Of a stretch of 64,000 bases of DNA, positions 51,168 through 62,526 are shown piece by piece. The position numbers and the translations under genes are program-made. Source of the DNA: Planctomycetota bacterium (GTDB lineage: Bacteria; Planctomycetota; Planctomycetia; Planctomycetales; Planctomycetaceae). Under the pieces are notes generated by a model, which was not told where the DNA came from, did not search any database, and saw nothing but the letters and a program-made list of their open reading frames with translations. The DNA is taken from the NCBI GenBank assembly GCA_027623235.1, contig JAQBVJ010000013.1, forward strand, positions 1 to 64,000, read 5' to 3'. Numbering within the stretch: the stretch's first letter is position 1; every line of letters starts with the position of its first letter.

Positions 51168-54100
51168 ATGAACGTGACCTCGCACCTGCCTGCACTTCGA
51201 CTTTCGACACGTTTCGGAACGCATCCGAAATCAGCCGGAACCCGGACGTTGTATCGGTCGCTTTGTCTGCTTGCGGTCCTCGTCGCAGCGGTGCCGGCCA
51301 CCGCGTTTGCTGACGCCTCCGACGAAATCTCCGTCCCGGACGGGTTTCGGGTCTCGCTGTTTGCCGACGACGACCTCGCACACGACGTTTACTGCATGAC
51401 CACCGATTCGCAGGGGCGAATTGTCGTTTCCGGGCCGGGTTATGTGCGAATCCTGATCGACACAGATGGAGACGGGAAAGCCGACGAGGCGAAGACGTTT
51501 GCCGACGGTCCGGAATCGGGAGCTCAAGGAATGTTTTTCCTGGGGCGGGATCTGTTCTGCATCGGCGACGCCGGTCTGCTGCGATATCGCGACGCCGACG
51601 GAGACGACCGGGCCGACGGGCCACCGCAGGCATTTCTGAAACTGAAGACCGGCGAAGAGCACCATGTTCACTCGATCCAGAAAGGCCCGGACGGCTGGTG
51701 GTACCTCATCGCCGGAAACTTCGCGGGCATCGATTCGAAATACGTCACGCTGCCGACCTCGCCGGTCAAGCAGCCTCAGGCGGGAACTTTGTTTCGGCTG
51801 AAGCCGGACCTCAGTGGCGGCGAGGTGGTTGCTCACGGATTTCGCAACGCGTACGACTTCGCATTTAACTCGCTCGGCGATGCCTTCACGTTTGACAGCG
51901 AAGGAGAGCGGGAAGTCTCTCTGCCCTGGTACCAGCCGACGCGGGTTTATCACGTTGTGCCGGGAGGCCACGCCGGCTGGGTGAGTCGCAGCTGGAAACA
52001 GCCAAGCGACTTCACGGACATGCCGCCGGTTCTGGCCGAGTTCGGACGCGGTTCGCCGACCGGAGTCGTCTGCTATCGCCACAACGCGTTTCCGGTCGAG
52101 TATCGCGATTCGCTCTTCGTCCTCGACTGGACCTACGGTCGGGTTCTCAATGTCAAATTGAAGCGGGATGGAGCGAGCTACGCGCCGACTCCGTCCGTTT
52201 TTATGAGGCAGAAAGGTCAGTTCGGATTTGCTCCGACAGATGCGACGATCGGCAAAGACGGCAGCGTGTTCGTGAGCATCGGCGGTCGAGGAACCCGCGG
52301 CGGAGTTTACCAGGTGACGGCAACGACTGGCGACAGACCTGACTGGCCGGGCGAAGCGAGCACTCTGGTTCAACAGGCAGTTGCCTGTGTGACCGCGCCG
52401 GAGCCTCTGTCGAGCTGGTCGCGCGAAGTCTGGCTGCCGTTGTCAAAGTCGGCCGGCCGTGGCGAATTCGTGAAGGTGGCGGTGAACCCAAAGAGCCCGA
52501 CTTCGCAGCGAGTGCGGGCGATCGAAATTCTCGTTTCCGAATTCGGCGGGCTGCTGGCCGATGAAGTGACGGCACTGCAGCAGGATGAGGTGCCGGAAAT
52601 CCGCGCGCGAGCCATCTGGGCCGTTGGACGAACGTCGCTGCCTGGCGAGAAACTGGCCGCACAATTCCTCGCTGATTCCGATCCGTACGTCGGTCGAGTT
52701 GCCTCGGAATCGTTGCTCGGTCAACCGGGCGAACTGTCCGATCCGGCGTTGATCAAGTCGCTGGTCGAGCGTCTGAACAGTGCTGACCGGTTCGACCGAA
52801 TGGCGGCTGCGCGGCTTGTGCCACAACTCGACGATAAGGCGTTTCGACAGCTCGCAACTGCGGCCGCGAAAGCAGGCTGGCAGGCAACCGTCGCGAACGC
52901 GTTCGGGTATCTCGGCCGAAATCCCGGCTACAGCCAGCACGCATTTCGAGCGGCGCTGCCGGTGCTGGAACGCGACTTTCCCGTCGAACTGAAGCTCGAA
53001 GCCGTTCGCCTGATGCAGATGGGACTCGGCGATCTGGCTCCCGTCGGACGCGTCAAACCGGTTTTCGAGGGATACGCACCGGCGATCGACCTCACCGAAG
53101 TTGAACGCGAACTCGACCTGCACCGCATCCGTCTGGCCGAGCTGTTTCCAACCGGCAACGATCGGCTGGACTTCGAGCTCGCCCGACTGCTCGCGATGCT
53201 CGAGCCGTTTAACGCGGAGCTGCTCACAAGAGTCCTCGCAAAAATCACCACCGAATCGCACCCGACCGCCGATCTGCACTATCTCATCGTGGCCGCGCGG
53301 TTGCCCGCTTCGCGCGACAAGGCTCACCGTGAGAAAACGGCGTCGGCTTTTGTCGCGATCGAACGAAAAATGAAGGAGCGGAAGCTCAATCAGGACTCCA
53401 ACTGGGAGCCGCGGCTGAAAGAACTTTACAAGACACTCATCGATCACGATCCGCTGCTGCCGGATGCGATCGTTGCGGAAGCAGGCTTTGGCCTGCCGGG
53501 CCACGTGCTCTTCATGAGTCATATTCCGGGCGAGCTGCTCGACACAGCCATCGACGCGTTTGCAAAGCAGGTCGCGGTCGATAAAGCATACCCGTGGTCG
53601 AACGACGTCGTCTTTGTGTTTGGTGAGTCACAGAAGCCCGAGCACCGCGAACTGATCCGCAGCCTTTACGATGAACACTTCAACGTGCGGGGCGCTGTCC
53701 AGGTCGTGCTGTCCGGCAAACCCGAGGAAACAGATCGAAGTAAATTTCTCGACGGCCTCGATTCGTCGCAACTGGAGATCCTCACGGCGTGCCTGGATGC
53801 GCTCGAAAAACTTCCGCCCGCGAAAGACGAATCGCAGATCGTCGCGCTGACCCGATGTCTGCGTCGGCTGGGATCGGACAAGAGTGAGTTCCCTGCCAGG
53901 CAACGCGTCGTCTCACTCCTGCGAGCCGCCACTGGGCAGAGTTTTGGTTTCGTCGACGGTCCGTCCGGATTCAACCGCCAGCAGGACGCTGTCGACCGCT
54001 GGTCGAATTGGGTCAGCGGTACGTTTCCGAATGCGGCCGCTGAAATCGAAGGCGCCAGCAGTCAGGACCTCGCCGCCTTGAAATCTCTCCTGGCGGACGT

Positions 54101-54518
54101 CGACTGGAGCGCTGGCGACACCGCTCGCGGCCGGATGCTGTTTGAAAAGCGAGCCTGCATCCAGTGCCACGGCGGTCGAACGGCGCTGGGCCCGGACCTG
54201 GACGGAATCGCCGGCCGGTTTTCTCGCGAGGATCTTTTCACCGCGATCGTGCTTCCGAATAAAGATGTCTCCTCCCGCTACCGCACAACGATGCTGGAAC
54301 TCGAAAACGGCAAGGTCTATTCCGGTCTGATCATCTACGAATCGGTCGACGGAGTGCTGCTGCGGAATTCGACCAATCAGACTTTCCGCATCGAAACCCG
54401 CGACGTTGCTTTACGAAGGCAACTGCCGACCTCCCTGATGCCGGCGGGTCTGCTGAAAGGACTGAAGCCTGAAGATCTGGCCGATCTGTACGAGTACTTG
54501 AATTCGCTGCGTCGCTAG
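51168..54518 (+). CDS. PVC-type membrane-bound dehydrogenase with C-terminal haem c domain
   Basis: A 1116-residue exported protein with a long N-terminus; the hydrophobic signal is LYRSLCLLAVLVAAVPATAFA at about residues 28-47. Residues about 55-390 are a PQQ/sugar-dehydrogenase-like propeller (VPDGFRVSLFADDDLAHDVY, MTTDSQGRIVVSGPGYV, LIDTDGDGKADEAKTFADGP, HHVHSIQKGPDGWWYLIAGN). About 420-960 is HEAT-repeat-like. Residues about 985-1116 form a haem c domain with CIQCH (RACIQCHGGRTALGPDLDGI) and the LENGKVYSGLIIYESVDGVL end typical of the family. The protein probably oxidises a sugar or alcohol at the envelope and passes electrons to the haem; the substrate is unknown. Confidence 0.92.
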   Translation: MNVTSHLPALRLSTRFGTHPKSAGTRTLYRSLCLLAVLVAAVPATAFADASDEISVPDGFRVSLFADDDLAHDVYCMTTDSQGRIVVSGPGYVRILIDTDGDGKADEAKTFADGPESGAQGMFFLGRDLFCIGDAGLLRYRDADGDDRADGPPQAFLKLKTGEEHHVHSIQKGPDGWWYLIAGNFAGIDSKYVTLPTSPVKQPQAGTLFRLKPDLSGGEVVAHGFRNAYDFAFNSLGDAFTFDSEGEREVSLPWYQPTRVYHVVPGGHAGWVSRSWKQPSDFTDMPPVLAEFGRGSPTGVVCYRHNAFPVEYRDSLFVLDWTYGRVLNVKLKRDGASYAPTPSVFMRQKGQFGFAPTDATIGKDGSVFVSIGGRGTRGGVYQVTATTGDRPDWPGEASTLVQQAVACVTAPEPLSSWSREVWLPLSKSAGRGEFVKVAVNPKSPTSQRVRAIEILVSEFGGLLADEVTALQQDEVPEIRARAIWAVGRTSLPGEKLAAQFLADSDPYVGRVASESLLGQPGELSDPALIKSLVERLNSADRFDRMAAARLVPQLDDKAFRQLATAAAKAGWQATVANAFGYLGRNPGYSQHAFRAALPVLERDFPVELKLEAVRLMQMGLGDLAPVGRVKPVFEGYAPAIDLTEVERELDLHRIRLAELFPTGNDRLDFELARLLAMLEPFNAELLTRVLAKITTESHPTADLHYLIVAARLPASRDKAHREKTASAFVAIERKMKERKLNQDSNWEPRLKELYKTLIDHDPLLPDAIVAEAGFGLPGHVLFMSHIPGELLDTAIDAFAKQVAVDKAYPWSNDVVFVFGESQKPEHRELIRSLYDEHFNVRGAVQVVLSGKPEETDRSKFLDGLDSSQLEILTACLDALEKLPPAKDESQIVALTRCLRRLGSDKSEFPARQRVVSLLRAATGQSFGFVDGPSGFNRQQDAVDRWSNWVSGTFPNAAAEIEGASSQDLAALKSLLADVDWSAGDTARGRMLFEKRACIQCHGGRTALGPDLDGIAGRFSREDLFTAIVLPNKDVSSRYRTTMLELENGKVYSGLIIYESVDGVLLRNSTNQTFRIETRDVALRRQLPTSLMPAGLLKGLKPEDLADLYEYLNSLRR

Positions 54519-55215: not shown

Positions 55216-56184
55216 TCACTCCACGGGACGGCTTTCGGAATGAAACGTCTTCCAGGCATGGGCAAAAGAGACGATTCCCACGTGAGGCTCGAGCGACGTT
55301 CCTTTGAGCTCGCCCTCAACGGCCGTGCCGGATCGGCGATCCCAGAGGCTCTTCGTCTGCGTGTCGCGAAGCTGCTCGCCAGCGGGCTCGAAGGTCAGCT
55401 CGCGTTTTCCGACGCGACGGACAAAGAGTCGCACCGAAGTCGATTTTGACTCGCTCAGAATCAGCAGCGGCAGGCCTCTGGCATCGACATTGAGCAGCGG
55501 CGACTTCTGCAGCTTCGAAAACGCAACATGATGCGGACCGTACTGGCCCATGAAGCCAACCACGAATCGCTCCGGATCTTTGTAGAACTCCTTTGTGAAA
55601 TTCTTTGAAGTGCGGGGCATGTTGAGCACTGTCGAGTCGGGATGCTCTTTCTTCCAGGCATCCCATGTGAGCATGTCTGACGGCAGCGACTTCAGTTCTG
55701 TGCCCTCGAGCTCGCCCTTCACACACTCACCAAGGATGTGACTCCACAGCGACCTCGTCTCCTGGTCCATCATGACAAGGCTGCGGTTCCACAACTGGCC
55801 GGAGACGACAAATGTCAGCTTCTGATCTTTGACTTTTCTGGCATACACGATGCCGTTGTGACAGAGGTGTCACCACGTGGCCGCGATGGCCGAACCTCCC
55901 AGCTCATCGTTGATGATTTCCCGGATCGGTCCGGTGAGCTGGTTGATCGGATAGGCGCGCGCCTTGCCGTTCACGACGACGCCCAGCACCAGTTCGTTCG
56001 GCAGCACCTCGTCTTTCACGTCCGCTGCTTTCAGCAATGGCACCTCGACGATGGCGTCAAACGGTTTCATGAGAACGCGCGGGCGGAATGGCAGTTTCTC
56101 TTCCGCCGATGAGTTTCGATCGGGCAGTCCCGCCACGAGAGCCACAAGGGCCGCCGGAATGAACAATGTCACGAGAGGTTTCAT
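55216..56184 (-). CDS. DUF3179 exported protein with in-frame TGA at a conserved Cys position (candidate selenoprotein)
   Basis: Read through one TGA (55872-55870), the gene encodes 322 residues of a DUF3179 protein. A signal peptide is at the start (MKPLVTLFIPAALVALVAGL). Both sides of the TGA match the family: VNGKARAYPINQLTGP and GGSAIAATW before it, HLCHNGIVYARKV, then FVVSGQLWNRSLVMMDQET and RSLWSHILGECVKGELEGT after it. Relatives have Cys-x-x-Cys in a T-[WFY]-C-P-L-C-type context. Here the first cysteine is replaced by TGA (residue 105) and the second kept (Cys108), giving a candidate U-x-x-C. The next 15-30 nucleotides hold a possible SECIS hairpin. No other disruption is seen, so this is either a selenoprotein or a single nonsense mutation. 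Function of the family is unknown; it starts 17 bp after addA. Confidence 0.75.
55840..55854 (-). promoter_or_regulatory. Candidate bacterial SECIS hairpin after the TGA codon
   Basis: On the transcript GGCAU pairs perfectly with AUGCC around the loop CGUGU. The stem starts 16 nt and the loop 21 nt after the UGA; the second loop base is G. Bacterial SECIS elements need a short stem, a small loop with a guanine among its first two bases, and a loop lying roughly 16-37 nt after UGA; these conditions are met. A second hairpin, GUGACA-CCUC-UGUCAC (55873-55858), includes the UGA itself. Five-base-pair stems occur by chance, so this is suggestive only. Confidence 0.35.
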
Positions 56185-56201: not shown

Positions 56202-59200
56202 TCACTCGCACGTCACCGGGCAGACGGCACCGGTCGTCACGAAGAGTAACCTTGCGGAAATCTGGTTCTGTGAGAGGCGATACAATTCTCCGACGGCTCG
56301 CCGGTACGCGGAGATCTGGTCACGATAAAATTCCGCACGGGAATCAGCCGCCGCCTGGCCGGAATCAATCTCGTCCGTCTTGTAGTCGACGATGTCTGCC
56401 CCAAGCAGCTCAAACGACGCGGCATCGTAGACCAGCACCAGCCGGTCGATGATCCCGGTCATGAGCGTGCCCTCGCGATCCGGCGCGGTGAAGCCCCACT
56501 CACGATGAACTTCCAGCCGCGTTTCCGCTTGCGCAATCCGAACCTGAGCCTCCTTCGAAATCGCGAGTTGGCAGCCGTCGTCACGCGAGTGTCGCGAGAG
56601 TAGTGCGATTGTCGCTGGCTTCTGCAGGAACTTTTCAAACCGCGCGATCTCGTCGTCGATGTCGACTCCGGCCGAAGCGTGCAGCCCGGCGAGCTTCCTC
56701 AGACGCTGCTCGTCCGGCGGTCCCTCGTCGAGCCACTCGATTTCCTCGAACCAGCGATGCAGCAGCGTGCCACGTTCCAGTCGCTCGGCTCGGTCCAGAC
56801 TGAGCAGATCGTTGATCCGCACCGTACTGCCACCTTCCAGTCCGGACGGCTCAACCATGGCGAGCCCGCGCTGGCGGCCGGCCGGCATCGGGGCAAGTTC
56901 AATCCGGCCTCGCCGAACAACTTCTCTCGCAACCTCGGGAATCGAATCCGGTGGGTTGGTCTGCTCGTACCAACGCGAGTCGCCCGTCTCAAACAAAACA
57001 GTATCCGGATCAGCCGACGCGCCGGACCGGGCGAGCCCTTTTCTCAACAAACCGCTCAGGCTGGAACGAAGCGTATCCTTCTTCCCCAGAGCCGGCGGGA
57101 TGAGCATGTAGCACGCATGCCGGGCCCGCGTGATCGCGACGTAAAGGACGCAGAGTGATTGCGTGACCGCTTCCTCAGTCCAGCCGGAAAACACAGTTTG
57201 AAACTCTTCCGGCAGCAGTTTCTGAATTTCCGTGCGACGATAAATACTGACTCGATCGATCGGCGAAGTCGGCGTAGGCCGTCCGGAAACAACGCGCGGC
57301 GATGGGCCGTGCAGATTCGAATCGAGCTCCGGCAGCACGACAATGTCGAACTCCAGCCCCTTTGATTTGTGAATCGTCATGACGCGAATCCGGTGAGTCG
57401 ACGGGTCCTGCACCCGCTCGTTCCGGACGACGTCGATGAACTGCCGCGTGCGGATCTCGTCTGAAGCCTGAGTTCGCGAAGCCAACGCGACGAGTTGTTC
57501 GAGCCGCCTCGCGTCGCGCGCACTGCACGAAGAAACGAGCCGGCGCGACCACAACTCAAGCATCGCATGCAGACCGTGCGTCGCGATTTCTCGACGCAGC
57601 CGGCGCGACAGATCATGCGCGACCTCATCACAGGAGTGATCTGAATAATCGAAGAGAGCTCCGACCGGCGACGTCGCCACGTGAAACCGCGCGACGGTGT
57701 TTCCCGGGTGATCGGCAATCGTCAGCAGCGAGAGGATGACCTCAACCGCTGCCGAATCCGTCAGTGGGTTTCCGCCTTCTTCGCTGGCCTCAACCTGACG
57801 CTCGCGAAGCTCGAACATCAGCCGCGCGATCGTCGCGTTGCTGCGACAGAGAATGCCGACCGTCGCGTGCGGAGCAAGCCGTGCCAGCTCAGCGACCCGG
57901 TCCGCAGCCGCAGCGAACGTCGTCTGCTTCTGCGTGCTGCTGGAAATTGAGTCGGCGCTATCCTGCGAATCGGGGTCTTCCGCCAGCGGCGCGGTCCGCA
58001 GTTCACAGTACCCGGGAAGTTCCTTCAGAAACGTCGAGTGCTCTTCGAATCGACCAGACCACCGCGCGACAGCCTGCTTCTCGGCGTCACTCAGTGCGGA
58101 CAGCTCGGTGAGGCGTTCCTCGCCAAACAGTCGATTGACTGTGTCGATCACCGCCTGCGATGAACGTCGGCTTTCGAGCAGTTGCTCTTTCTTCAGGCCG
58201 TTGAGCTGTGACTCGACCTTGTCGAAGATGTCGGCCACGCCGCCGCGCCAACTGTAAATCGCCTGTTTGACATCGCCGACGCAGAAGAAGGTCCGCCCCG
58301 GTTTGTCCTGCGTCACCTGCCGCGCGAACGGTTCCAGGATCGACCACTGCGGCAGCGAGGTATCCTGAAACTCGTCGAGCAGCAGATGCTGCATCTTCGA
58401 GTCCAAACGAAAGGCGATCTGGTCGAGGTCCATCTGCGCGACGGCCTCAGCCAGGCGTCGCGTTACGTCGTCGTGAGTCAGCCAGCGGCGTTCCTGTTTG
58501 AGTCGCATGTAGACCGCGTGAAACTGCTGCAGCAACTGAAACAGCGCGGCCGTCTGCTCAGCCATCTGCGGAATGATCACCCCTCGCGCGTGTCGGATCA
58601 GTCGTTCAAAGAGACTTCGCACGTTCGGCTCAATCGTCTTCCTGTCGTATGCGGCTTCTCCATCGAGCACTTTGCCGGCAATGCCACCCTCGATGAATTT
58701 TTCCCAGTCTTCATGCTCGAATGCGGCGAGCGCTTTGTCGCGGGACTTGCGCCAGTTCGCATGTTCCTTCCCCGCTTTTGTCAGCGGAAGTTCCATTTCC
58801 TGCAGATCCGCGATGGCCACAAGAAGTTGATCCGGGCCGAGCGGATGGAACTCCGGGAACTGCTTCCAGGCGGACTCGTCACTTTCGAGAAACGTCTGGT
58901 AGGCGTCGCTCACGGCGGCGTCGATCAGTCGCGTGACCGAGCGGTTCGAAGCGCCCACGGTGAAGAGCTCCAATTGACTGGCGAGGTTCGTCTGTTCTTC
59001 TCGCAGCAGCACCTCGATGGCCTCGCGCCGCATTTCTCGATCGCTGTTGCCGTCGATAATTGTCCAGCCGGGCGGCAGACCGAGGTCCAGCGAGCAATTC
59101 GTCGCAATCTGTGCGAAGAAGCTGTCCAGTGTCGAAACCCGCAACCGGTGCAGATCGCGCGTCAGTTTGTCGAGCAGCGTCTGGCACCCGTCACAGGTCA

Positions 59201-59516
59201 AAGGCCGATTCAAAAATCCAGAGAGAGCGTCACACTTCTTCTGGTCAAGAGCCGCCTCGGCGAGCCTGACGAGAATTCGGTCGAGAATTTCCCGAGCCGC
59301 CTTGCGCGTGAACGTCGTGGCGAGAATCTGAGCCGTGTCGGCGCTGGAAAACAGCTCACCAAGAAACCAGTTGGAAAGTCGAAACGTCTTGCCAGTCCCG
59401 GCGGATGCCCGAATGAGGACGCGGCGCGGCGACGCAGTTTCGTCCGCCGGGTCTGAGACCGGCAACGGATCGTCGGGTTGTGTGGATGTGTCCGGCATGA
59501 TTTTCTGAGCCAGCAT
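56202..59516 (-). CDS. addA: AddA-like UvrD-type helicase-nuclease
   Basis: An 1104-residue superfamily 1A helicase with a RecB-type nuclease end, closest to AddA, the helicase-nuclease subunit that processes broken DNA ends for recombination. Features in order: Walker A RASAGTGKTFRLSNWFLGEL (about 38-50), LATTFTRKAAREILDRI, LHRLRVSTLDSFFAQIATNC, LLLDEFQDTSLPQWSIL, FFCVGDVKQAIYSWRGGVAD, RIRVMTIHKSKGLEFDIVVL, and LCVLYVAITRARHACYML. The nuclease motif is TGIIDRLVLVYDA with DIVDYKTDEIDSG. The partner nuclease gene lies just upstream (66-bp gap). An alternative start at 59498 would shorten it by 6 residues. Confidence 0.92.
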   Translation of the reverse strand: MLAQKIMPDTSTQPDDPLPVSDPADETASPRRVLIRASAGTGKTFRLSNWFLGELFSSADTAQILATTFTRKAAREILDRILVRLAEAALDQKKCDALSGFLNRPLTCDGCQTLLDKLTRDLHRLRVSTLDSFFAQIATNCSLDLGLPPGWTIIDGNSDREMRREAIEVLLREEQTNLASQLELFTVGASNRSVTRLIDAAVSDAYQTFLESDESAWKQFPEFHPLGPDQLLVAIADLQEMELPLTKAGKEHANWRKSRDKALAAFEHEDWEKFIEGGIAGKVLDGEAAYDRKTIEPNVRSLFERLIRHARGVIIPQMAEQTAALFQLLQQFHAVYMRLKQERRWLTHDDVTRRLAEAVAQMDLDQIAFRLDSKMQHLLLDEFQDTSLPQWSILEPFARQVTQDKPGRTFFCVGDVKQAIYSWRGGVADIFDKVESQLNGLKKEQLLESRRSSQAVIDTVNRLFGEERLTELSALSDAEKQAVARWSGRFEEHSTFLKELPGYCELRTAPLAEDPDSQDSADSISSSTQKQTTFAAAADRVAELARLAPHATVGILCRSNATIARLMFELRERQVEASEEGGNPLTDSAAVEVILSLLTIADHPGNTVARFHVATSPVGALFDYSDHSCDEVAHDLSRRLRREIATHGLHAMLELWSRRLVSSCSARDARRLEQLVALASRTQASDEIRTRQFIDVVRNERVQDPSTHRIRVMTIHKSKGLEFDIVVLPELDSNLHGPSPRVVSGRPTPTSPIDRVSIYRRTEIQKLLPEEFQTVFSGWTEEAVTQSLCVLYVAITRARHACYMLIPPALGKKDTLRSSLSGLLRKGLARSGASADPDTVLFETGDSRWYEQTNPPDSIPEVAREVVRRGRIELAPMPAGRQRGLAMVEPSGLEGGSTVRINDLLSLDRAERLERGTLLHRWFEEIEWLDEGPPDEQRLRKLAGLHASAGVDIDDEIARFEKFLQKPATIALLSRHSRDDGCQLAISKEAQVRIAQAETRLEVHREWGFTAPDREGTLMTGIIDRLVLVYDAASFELLGADIVDYKTDEIDSGQAAADSRAEFYRDQISAYRRAVGELYRLSQNQISARLLFVTTGAVCPVTCE

Positions 59517-59582: not shown

Positions 59583-62408
59583 TTACCAGTTTTCCTTGTC
59601 GTCAATTGGGTCCGCTGCGTACGCCGGCGGCGGCAGTTGTTTCTCAAACACGTTTGCCTGGCAGATCGCGGCGAAGTCGTCCGACTCTCGTTTCAATGAG
59701 GCAACGGGCAGAAACTCTTTGTTGAGGATCCTTCGCGCAACCCGACGAGCTTCGGTGTCGGCCTCACTTAATTCCGTCGGAGACCAGTCCGCGTAGATGG
59801 CTCGGACGGTGTCGCGATCTTTTGGCAGGACGATGTAGCCAAGCCGAGGGACTGATACTCCCAGCGGCTTTGCCAGATGCCGGTACAGAGGAAGCTGCAG
59901 ATCAACCCACTCGCAGTTGCCATCTCTCGTCTTTTTCTGATGCGCCTGCCGGGGATTCCGTTCTGTCTCGCTCGTCTTGTAATCAAAAATTTCCCACTCG
60001 TTTTTCTCCGGGTGGTAATCGATCCGGTCGATGCGGCCTCGCAGCTCGATCACGCGGCCGTCGTCGGTCTGCAGTTTCACGGGCTCACGTTGCTCCGCCT
60101 CGACATGCTGGATCACCCAGCCCGCGCTGGCACGTTCCGCCTGCCAGTCTGCAAACGCGGCGAGGCGGCGGCGCATCTGGAGCAGCTGAATTTCAATCGC
60201 TGCCAACCGTTGCTGTCCGTAATCCTGCCTCGCGATCCAGTCGAGCCGGCTCTCGAGCGAGCGGCGAATCTGTCCGGCATCCACGCTCGACTTCAGCTCG
60301 GACTTTCCAAACCAGTCGAGCACCGAGTGAGCCAGATTTCCAAACTGCATCGGGTTGAGTTCCACACTGCTGTCGTCGAGCCGCTCCAGCTTCAAGACAT
60401 GCCGCAGATAAAACCGGTACGGACATTCGAGGTACGTGCGAAACGCCGTCACGCTGACAGCGGTCACTGTCTCGTCCGGGGATGGCACCGGCACTTTGAA
60501 GTGTCCTGCTCCACTTGCCTGGCGGGCGACTGTGATTCGGAGCGCCGGCTCAGCTTCAGGGGCCTCACCGAAAAACGCGATGCACCGCTCGGCGGTTTCG
60601 CGGCCGCCGCTCGTGAAGAGGAGGCGGCTCGGCAACTGCGGCTGATCCTCAAGCCCGCGCCGCGGCACCAGAAAACGCACATCCTCGCGTGAGGCCAGCA
60701 CGGCGCTGAGTGCGTAAGCGTCCCGGGCGAAGTAGCGGGCACTGTCAACCAGGCCGAGCGTCCTTCGCAGATCGTTTGGCAGGAAGAGATCCGACGTGAT
60801 CGATCGCGGCACGAAGCCATCATTAAAGCTGGTCACAATGGCGGCCGGAGCATCGTCGAGCGGCAGTTCCAGCCAGCCAAGCATCTCGATGGCTGCTTCG
60901 TCGGGCTCCGAAATGAGCGACTCGCCAGAGAGCTGATCGAGCACGAGCCGGACGGTCTCACTGGCCGTCAGCTTCAACGTGATCTCCTGGGGAATTCGGG
61001 TCAGATCGAGCAGCACTTTGTGAACCTGCTGCAGCGCCGACACGGTTGCAGCTTCTTCGGGGACGTCCCGGTCGAACTCGACGCCGTCGTAAAGATCGAG
61101 GATGACCCGCAGAACGAGCGGTGACCAGTCGGCTGGCGACCGCCTGCCACGCCGCAGGACACGCGTCGTCTGCTCGACCAGAGCATGCACGTTGCGAATC
61201 TGCTGATGCTTTTCTTCCTGGCCAAGCCACTCACCCATCTGCGACGGCAGATGCCGATCGAAATAGCGGTCGAGTTCGGTCAGCCAGGCGGGATTCGCGT
61301 CTTTGCGAAGCAGCCAGGACTCGACATCGGCATGCCGCACGAGCGTCGCGAACCGCGAGAACTTTTCATCGTCGAGGTAGTCGGCGAGCGCGGACAGAAA
61401 CCGGCACGGCAGCGTCTCGGTGATTTCCTGCGCGACGAGCCATCGCGTCGGCACGTCCAGATGGTTGAGGTGCCCCTGAAGATTTCGCACGATGTGCTCG
61501 TCGCAAACCCCGATCGTGATTTCGTCCGCTCGGTATTTCCCGTCAAAGCCGCCCAGGCAGCCGGCGACGACTGCGGCTTGATCATCCGGGTCGTCGGCGA
61601 GAAGGAGCTGTTCATCGCGGATCGGAATCGCCCGCGTCGTCCACTTGTCCGTTCGAAGACAGCCGAGCTTGTCGAAGCCCGACTTTTCCGTTTCCGGAGC
61701 GTGAATGAGAACCGTGACTCGATCGGCAATCTGCTCCACCACGTGTCGCGTGGCAACATTCATGTCGACCGTGCCGAGCAGCACGATCGAGGCGCTCGCC
61801 CGCAGCGATGATTCCGCAGCAAACTCCCGATGTTCGATCGCGAACAGCCGCGCGGTCTGCAGATCCCACAAAGCCAGATCGTCGAGCAGCCGCAGGTACG
61901 ATTCCTGAACGGTGCGCAGGACGCTCCAGCGCCGGGATTCGCGGCGGACTCCTTTCTCAGCGACATCAGCGAAGTTGAGTCCGTCGGCCGCCAGCTCTCG
62001 ATGCTGCTTCGAAAGCAGCTCGCCGAGTTCCAGCCACCGCGCGTCGTCCTTCTCATCCGGGAGTTTCGGAATGACTCGCGACAGCTCTCGCCGATCGGTC
62101 CGTCGCAGCGCGTGCGTCCAGGCGAGCCTCTGAACCAGCTCCGACGCGAACGGGAATTTCGGTTCGTAAAGCAGCTCCGGCAACTGACCCACCGTCGTCA
62201 CCGTCGGCCGGGAGAACCGCCAGCCGTGCTGCTGAGTCCGCTCGATCAGCAGCTCCAGAAGTCGCCGTCCCGCGCGTTTTCCTGGCACGACGACGATCGT
62301 GTTGCTCAGGTCGACGTGGCTCATCATCCGCGCGTCGCGGATAAGCCAGTCGGCCGCCTGCGGCAGTGCGGGCTGCGACCAGTCCAGAAACGTCCGTGGG
62401 ATCGCCAT
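59583..62408 (-). CDS. AddB-like PD-(D/E)XK nuclease family protein
   Basis: A 941-residue protein; the start at 62408 (MAIPRTFLDWSQPALPQAAD) follows a short unlikely leader from 62471. The N-terminal part resembles the inactivated helicase of AddB/RexB-type subunits (NTIVVVPGKRAGRRLLELLI, TVTTVGQLPELLYE). The C-terminal RecB-like nuclease has TAFRTYLECPYRFYLRHVLK, FGNLAHSVLDWFGKSEL, ELRGRIDRIDYHPE, WEIFDYKTSETE and LQLPLYRHLAK. In AddB the nuclease holds an iron-sulfur cluster formed with C-terminal cysteines; only one cysteine (FAAICQANVF) is near the end here, so the cluster may be absent. It is followed directly by addA, and the pair should act as a DNA-end resection complex. Confidence 0.85.
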   Translation of the reverse strand: MAIPRTFLDWSQPALPQAADWLIRDARMMSHVDLSNTIVVVPGKRAGRRLLELLIERTQQHGWRFSRPTVTTVGQLPELLYEPKFPFASELVQRLAWTHALRRTDRRELSRVIPKLPDEKDDARWLELGELLSKQHRELAADGLNFADVAEKGVRRESRRWSVLRTVQESYLRLLDDLALWDLQTARLFAIEHREFAAESSLRASASIVLLGTVDMNVATRHVVEQIADRVTVLIHAPETEKSGFDKLGCLRTDKWTTRAIPIRDEQLLLADDPDDQAAVVAGCLGGFDGKYRADEITIGVCDEHIVRNLQGHLNHLDVPTRWLVAQEITETLPCRFLSALADYLDDEKFSRFATLVRHADVESWLLRKDANPAWLTELDRYFDRHLPSQMGEWLGQEEKHQQIRNVHALVEQTTRVLRRGRRSPADWSPLVLRVILDLYDGVEFDRDVPEEAATVSALQQVHKVLLDLTRIPQEITLKLTASETVRLVLDQLSGESLISEPDEAAIEMLGWLELPLDDAPAAIVTSFNDGFVPRSITSDLFLPNDLRRTLGLVDSARYFARDAYALSAVLASREDVRFLVPRRGLEDQPQLPSRLLFTSGGRETAERCIAFFGEAPEAEPALRITVARQASGAGHFKVPVPSPDETVTAVSVTAFRTYLECPYRFYLRHVLKLERLDDSSVELNPMQFGNLAHSVLDWFGKSELKSSVDAGQIRRSLESRLDWIARQDYGQQRLAAIEIQLLQMRRRLAAFADWQAERASAGWVIQHVEAEQREPVKLQTDDGRVIELRGRIDRIDYHPEKNEWEIFDYKTSETERNPRQAHQKKTRDGNCEWVDLQLPLYRHLAKPLGVSVPRLGYIVLPKDRDTVRAIYADWSPTELSEADTEARRVARRILNKEFLPVASLKRESDDFAAICQANVFEKQLPPPAYAADPIDDKENW

Positions 62409-62526
62409 GCGGAAAAAGTCCTCGTGAGTCCGTTCTGCGAGAAGAATAGCGAGCCGGCCTGACAGATTCACGCAGCGCCGACACGCGCTGACGGTTCGAG
62501 GTTGTAAATTTCAGATCAGAAGGCTG

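What the first reader, a model, noticed from the sequence alone, without database searches (positions are those of the whole stretch)
55216..56184. Candidate selenoprotein: DUF3179 gene with TGA in place of a conserved cysteine
The two reading frames on either side of one TGA are in the same frame and together make a full-length DUF3179 protein. The TGA falls exactly on the first cysteine of the family's Cys-x-x-Cys (TW-TGA-HLC), the classic sign of selenocysteine. The sequence on both sides is intact and family-like, with no other stop or shift. A short hairpin at 55840-55854 sits at a SECIS-compatible distance with a G in the second loop position. The alternative is one recent nonsense mutation (TGC to TGA) or a sequencing error.
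Basis: partly seen in the sequence, partly recalled or inferred. Interest (0 to 1): 0.9.

Follow-up and report, generated by a model that had tools for sequence, protein, structure and literature searches.

The report
Selenocysteine DUF3179 protein in a planctomycete
A bacterial gene that looks broken by a stop codon is almost certainly intact and uses that codon to insert selenocysteine; it is a new member of an already predicted selenoprotein family, found here in many planctomycetes and some other bacteria.

Summary
On the minus strand, ATG 56184 to stop 55216 is one DUF3179 gene with a single internal in-frame TGA (55872-55870, codon 105) at the first Cys of CxxC (TW-U-HLC). The genome has tRNA-Sec, SelA, SelB and SelD. 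The same TGA is at this column in 63 of 69 close GTDB relatives whose site could be read (Planctomycetota, Verrucomicrobiota, Poribacteria), which all but excludes a sequencing error or recent nonsense mutation. The hairpin at 55854-55840 fits the published bacterial SECIS model; it covaries strongly in TGA genes and not in Cys homologues, and a model built without this gene finds it at E 1.3e-9. DUF3179 is already catalogued as a predicted selenoprotein family, UxxC/T, so this is a new member, not a new kind. Added here: Sec is the prevailing form in this subfamily; the protein is an internal duplication with UxxC only in lobe 1; some TGA genes keep Sec without the second Cys. The biochemical role, probably an exported redox enzyme, is inference; a Rieske-like fold is only a weak lead.

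The parts
55216..56184 (-). DUF3179 selenoprotein gene, ATG 56184 to TGA stop 55218-55216, 322 residues with Sec at 105
   Evidence: GAGGA five bases before the ATG (read)
55870..55872 (-). in-frame TGA, selenocysteine codon 105, at the first Cys of CxxC
   Evidence: same column TGA in 63 of 69 GTDB relatives read
55840..55854 (-). SECIS hairpin core, stem GGCAU/AUGCC, loop CGUGU, loop starts 20 nt after the UGA
56125..56184 (-). likely N-terminal signal sequence (first ~20 residues, MKPLVTLFIPAALVALVAGL)
   Evidence: judged by eye; low pLDDT in the first 30 residues; no signal-peptide predictor was run
55570..56067 (-). lobe 1 (about residues 40-205), carries Sec105 and Cys108
55219..55569 (-). 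lobe 2 (about residues 206-322), homologous to lobe 1 but without the Sec/Cys pair
   Evidence: hhalign probability 99.8, E 3.7e-28

Best explanation
The gene is a functional DUF3179 selenoprotein. SelB, carrying Sec-tRNA made by SelA with selenophosphate from SelD, binds the hairpin 20 nt downstream of the UGA and inserts selenocysteine at residue 105, giving an intact 322-residue, probably exported protein of two homologous beta-rich lobes; only lobe 1 carries the U-x-x-C pair. Shown by computation: the machinery, TGA conserved at one column, SECIS covariation, the internal duplication. Inferred: that the protein is made, that it is exported, and that Sec105 with Cys108 works as a selenol/thiol redox pair on an unknown substrate outside the cytoplasm, Sec being the reactive residue and the partner Cys helpful but dispensable. 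The confidence given is for Sec decoding; for the redox role I would say about 0.5.
For: tRNA-Sec 75.9 bits, gathering 47 (ARAGORN); selB, selA, selD over curated cut-offs. Of 80 TGA-flagged DUF3179 matches that I read (own gene included) 79 have the TGA at this column; L072 is the exception. GTDB relatives: TGA 63, TGC 4, TGT 2 of 69 read. SECIS: covariation 0.542 against 0.169 in shuffles (0 of 500 as high) in 63 TGA rows, 0.186 against 0.174 in Cys rows; complete inner stem in 62 of 63 TGA and 0 of 6 Cys GTDB rows. Held-out model E 1.3e-9 in the window, 1.5e-7 in the genome. Strong SelA in 48 of 53 genomes with a TGA form and 37 of 68 without, p 1.6e-5. Both sides of the TGA stay conserved against the nearest relative L174 (50 of 74 residues before, 129 of 217 after). 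Sec kept without the second Cys: of 79 TGA rows 66 have Cys at +3, 7 Ala, 3 Thr, 2 Glu, 1 undetermined.
Against: No protein or mRNA evidence. Five of 53 genomes with a TGA form lack strong SelA (G212, G082, G164, G173, G061; drafts 77-92% complete). No second selenoprotein was found in this genome: no in-frame TGA in the listed FdhA or DUF1573 matches, and SelD is the Cys form. Rfam finds no SECIS here and the single-sequence fold is ordinary. 15 of 78 TGA rows form the hairpin only in a shifted register. No conserved neighbour, solved relative or significant fold match supports the redox role.
Confidence: 0.93

Rival explanations
1. Pseudogene or sequencing error: one Cys-to-TGA change in a dying or misread gene.
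For: The gene stands alone in its genome, and one base separates TGA from TGC or TGT.
Against: The same TGA in 63 of 69 GTDB relatives and a matching SECIS; both sides of the TGA equally conserved with third-position-rich change against L174.
Confidence: 0.02
2. UGA is read in this organism as another amino acid, or by ordinary leaky readthrough, not as Sec.
For: An open frame under a changed code proves nothing about Sec by itself.
Against: The gene itself ends in TGA; the site alternates with Cys codons; the Sec machinery is complete; the SECIS covaries.
Confidence: 0.02
3. Sec is inserted, but it and the neighbouring Cys/His serve to bind a metal or cofactor in a Rieske-like fold, not as a thiol/selenol redox pair.
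For: Among the 50 listed Foldseek matches of each model, those with probability 0.30 or more are, to my knowledge, Rieske-type domains (3c0d 0.82 and 0.75, 3gce 0.75 with TMt 0.61, 8h2t 0.63, 4aiv 0.38, 3gcf 0.35, 4nbc 0.30, 4nbh 0.30; similar). His109 follows Cys108.
Against: No Foldseek PDB match reaches E 0.001; the best of these has E 0.17 or 0.21. hhalign against 30 Rieske domains of related genomes gives probability under 1%. No Rieske Pfam model among the hits of 49 members. Loss of the second Cys in some TGA rows argues against a fixed ligand set.
Confidence: 0.2

Closest known systems
DUF3179 (PF11376) selenoprotein family, UxxC/T, in the tables of PMC9312934 and PMC13188914 (table passages seen); PMC9312934 credits Zhang and Gladyshev 2007 (reference line seen; paper not held)
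   Same: Same Pfam family, Sec at the first position of UxxC, SECIS downstream
   Different: A different member; the passages seen do not describe the planctomycete-centred, two-lobed HLCHNG subfamily or its SECIS covariation. The primary paper was not read.
UxxC thioredoxin-fold selenoproteins (general class named in PMC13188914, passages seen)
   Same: U-x-x-C motif, presumed redox role
   Different: The predicted fold is a beta-rich duplicated domain; no entry titled as thioredoxin is among the 50 listed PDB matches of either model
Rieske-type domains
   Same: Highest Foldseek probabilities
   Different: Not significant by E-value; sequence profiles do not align; no C-x-H ... C-x-x-H pattern seen by eye in the window protein

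Membership tests
Bacterial selenoprotein gene | In-frame UGA at a position where homologues have Cys | tested here: met
Bacterial selenoprotein gene | SECIS hairpin downstream, G in one of the first two loop positions, 16-37 nt from UGA (model as described in PMC13188914, passage seen) | tested here: met
   distance 20 nt
Bacterial selenoprotein gene | tRNA-Sec, SelA, SelB, SelD in the genome | tested here: met
Bacterial selenoprotein gene | Selenium in the full-length protein | not testable with these tools
   needs labelling or mass spectrometry
DUF3179 (PF11376) | Match over the curated cut-off of 27 bits | tested here: met
   191 bits
DUF3179 selenoprotein family (UxxC/T) | Sec at the first position of UxxC/T | tested here: met
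   U105-H-L-C108
Rieske-type domain | Significant fold match | tested here: inconclusive
   best probabilities are Rieske-type, none with E of 0.001 or less
Rieske-type domain | Sequence-profile similarity | tested here: not met
   hhalign probability under 1%; no Rieske hit

The most novel reading that the evidence does not exclude
DUF3179 is a two-lobed, cluster-less derivative of the Rieske-type fold in which a U-x-x-C pair in one lobe makes an exported selenoenzyme on a fold other than thioredoxin. In planctomycetes and relatives the Sec form is the old, prevailing state with several later changes to Cys, and this enzyme is one of the genes that keep the Sec machinery in these genomes.
Probability: 0.2. 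Interest if true: 0.6.

Novelty: new member of a known kind. Interest (0 to 1): 0.38.

Why it matters
A gene caller that reads every UGA as stop cuts this gene in two, as the mechanical ORF list does here. The set gathered here (63 TGA relatives, 62 with a complete SECIS inner stem) would let the subfamily be annotated correctly and gives Sec/Cys pairs for biochemistry. DUF3179 has no known function, so a conserved Sec shows where its chemistry is likely to be.

Tried and rejected
Rfam scan of the region: three weak hits below their gathering scores, no SECIS. Single-sequence folding: the hairpin is not special; over all rows the mean z is -1.10 for TGA and -0.33 for Cys (p 5.5e-4), real but modest, so I went to covariation. 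Neighbourhood: UvrD-type and PD-(D/E)XK genes lie upstream, but ten neighbours taken from eight relatives were of other kinds or (three of ten) without a Pfam match, so no operon-based function. PDB by sequence: one hit at E 0.51, none. NCBIfam: no hit. Other selenoproteins in this genome: no in-frame TGA in the listed FdhA and DUF1573 matches, SelD has Cys; the only other SECIS-model hit, L254 (20.2 bits, E 1.33), shows no convincing frame by eye, and that search scored 150 of 2259 candidates. Rieske homology by sequence: not supported. Plasmid records hold only distant DUF3179 genes, 27 records, all under 60% identity.

Limits of the counts. In one search loci were chosen with preference for TGA-flagged matches, so its 79 TGA, 36 TGC and 24 TGT (of 213 aligned rows; 74 rows have other codons, by eye mostly second-lobe or degenerate copies, not counted) is not a frequency. 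SelA counted as strong at about E 1e-77 or better; one counted genome (G176, 6.9e-78) may lie just under the curated score. Alignment A1 leaves out 15 of 78 TGA rows that share other protein motifs and a shifted hairpin; I left them out, so 55 of 78 is the unselected figure. L121 was dropped for undetermined bases. The held-out model R1 also carries conserved coding letters, so its score is not structure alone, and its 62 rows include members of the same subfamily. GTDB loci and genome-search loci overlap (for example L176 and L135). Rows are related, so p-values are descriptive.

Full report
OBSERVATION. The gene lies on the minus strand, ATG at 56184, final TGA at 55218-55216. One internal in-frame TGA at 55872-55870 splits it into two ORFs in a mechanical list. 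Read through, the protein has 322 residues and matches PF11376 (DUF3179) at 191 bits. The TGA is the first position of the family's C-x-x-C (ATW-U-HLCHNG). A GAGGA precedes the ATG by five bases (read). The UvrD-type gene upstream ends 17 nt before the ATG.

MACHINERY. The genome (G000, 7.4 Mb, 253 contigs, 93.65% complete, 0.57% contamination) has tRNA-Sec at 75.9 bits against a gathering score of 47 (ARAGORN agrees), SelB, SelA and SelD, each over its cut-off. SelD has Cys at its active site and is preceded in the same frame by an oxidoreductase-like stretch (by eye). One search lists no second DUF3179 gene in this genome (both of its matches lie in this gene).

SAME CODON ELSEWHERE. In a phylum sample 139 of 392 genomes have a DUF3179 match, and many printed matches carry exactly one TGA; in the family sample it is 79 of 170 genomes. 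I read the site in 152 loci chosen with preference for TGA-flagged matches: TGA 79, TGC 36, TGT 24, so this is not a frequency. Of 80 TGA-flagged matches read (own gene included), 79 have the TGA at this column; L072 has it elsewhere with Cys at the site. 77 of the 79 TGA rows have no other in-frame TGA or undetermined codon within 60 residues (L121 has undetermined bases, L146 one more). A GTDB scan with the subfamily alignment gave 70 loci; the site could be read in 69: TGA 63, TGC 4, TGT 2. One of the two patterns used spells the site as Cys, so the scan if anything favours Cys forms. The two sets overlap. Record titles name Planctomycetota, Verrucomicrobiota and Candidatus Poribacteria among others. 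The window's organism is inferred to be a planctomycete: G427 of its own family has a contig of the same length (345,384) as the Planctomycetaceae contig of L176.

GENOMES. Among genomes whose DUF3179 match was printed, 48 of 53 with a TGA form have strong SelA, against 37 of 68 without (Fisher p 1.6e-5). The five exceptions (G212, G082, G164, G173, G061) are drafts of 77-92% completeness.

SECIS. With U of UGA as 1, positions 19-23 pair with 29-33 around a loop at 24-28. All five pairs form in 55 of 78 TGA rows and 1 of 60 Cys rows. With a floating register and G required in the first two loop bases, a stem of six or more pairs is found in 60 of 78 TGA rows and 9 of 60 Cys rows. In the 63 rows of one register each of the seven pairs 17-23/29-35 has changes on both sides, 88.4% of cells pair, and the covariation score is 0.542 against 0.169 in shuffles and at most 0.129 in slid versions. 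The Cys rows give 50.5% and 0.186 against 0.174. The stem is written GGCAU/AUGCC, GCCAU/AUGGC, GGAGU/ACUCC, GCUAU/AUAGC and so on. The second loop base is G in 63 of 63 rows of A1, and G at this place is also frequent in Cys rows (52 of 60), so the G alone says little. The bacterial SECIS model described in PMC13188914 (passage seen) asks for a G in one of the first two loop positions, often followed by G or U, 16-37 nt from the UGA; here it is 20 nt. A covariance model built without the window gene finds it in the window at E 1.3e-9, next hit E 1.5, and in the genome at E 1.5e-7. In the GTDB set the inner stem is complete in 62 of 63 TGA and 0 of 6 Cys genes.

HISTORY. On a tree of 77 proteins (64 Sec, 13 Cys; quick method) the window protein groups with Sec forms of planctomycetes (nearest L174, 57% identity); the Sec/Cys label needs 7 changes, at least 5 of them forced by well-supported branches. 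Cys rows fall in several places within the mostly-Sec subfamily, which fits Sec-to-Cys replacement; the tree is not rooted, so direction is inferred.

PROTEIN. AlphaFold2 on 49 sequences gives mean pLDDT 93.6, lobe 1 alone 95.7. Profile comparison shows that lobe 2 repeats lobe 1 (probability 99.8, E 3.7e-28) without the Sec/Cys pair. Of 79 TGA rows, 66 have Cys three residues after Sec, 7 Ala, 3 Thr, 2 Glu, 1 undetermined: Sec can outlast its partner. No useful PDB relative by sequence. By fold, no PDB match is significant; those with the highest Foldseek probabilities are Rieske-type, but a sequence-profile test against 30 Rieske domains is negative. I keep it as a lead. The aligned ranges were not printed, so I cannot say whether the Sec loop falls on the Rieske cluster loops.

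FUNCTION. No shared neighbours among those scanned. The apparent N-terminal signal sequence (by eye) and the U-x-x-C pair suggest an exported selenol/thiol oxidoreductase; this is inference.

KNOWN. A text search for DUF3179 found three papers; two list it as a predicted selenoprotein family, UxxC/T (table passages seen); the third was seen in the listing only. PMC9312934 credits Zhang and Gladyshev 2007, which is not held; PMC13188914 cites its reference 60, which I did not look up. A search with Verrucomicrobi and Poribacteria found no paper.

Noticed in passing
L021 (G000:C122:100587-104534), minus strand: SelD of this genome has Cys at its active site and follows, in one open frame, an FAD/NAD oxidoreductase-like N-terminal stretch, like a fused gene (domain by eye).
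   Followed up: no
L048, L050, L051, L088, L089, L093, L130 (Ala); L116, L126, L128 (Thr): TGA kept although the second Cys of UxxC is replaced by Ala or Thr.
   Followed up: partly
L077-L080, L083, L085-L087, L090, L091 and L081, L082, L084, L144, L145: 15 TGA genes whose SECIS hairpin sits a few bases further on with loops such as GUUU or AGUUUC; a second hairpin register in the same family.
   Followed up: partly
L062 (G519:C2): Two DUF3179 genes side by side, both with Cys, one of them (L062:178-1323 -) of the HLCHNG subfamily.
   Followed up: no
L167, L168 (Ala), L170 (Ser), L172 (Gly), L173 (His): DUF3179 copies with neither Cys nor Sec at the site; function without the reactive residue is unexplained.
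   Followed up: no
window 51168-54518 +: 1116-residue protein with DUF7133, HEAT repeats and a weak cytochrome c match, on the other strand near the gene.
   Followed up: no
window 56202-59516 - and 59583-62471 -: UvrD helicase with PD-(D/E)XK nuclease and a second PD-(D/E)XK protein, an AddAB-like pair (name recalled) just upstream of the selenoprotein gene.
   Followed up: no
BFVD A0A1V0SD44 (Indivirus ILV1): A giant-virus protein of unknown function has a predicted structure like this one (Foldseek E 2.8e-7, TMt 0.52).
   Followed up: no
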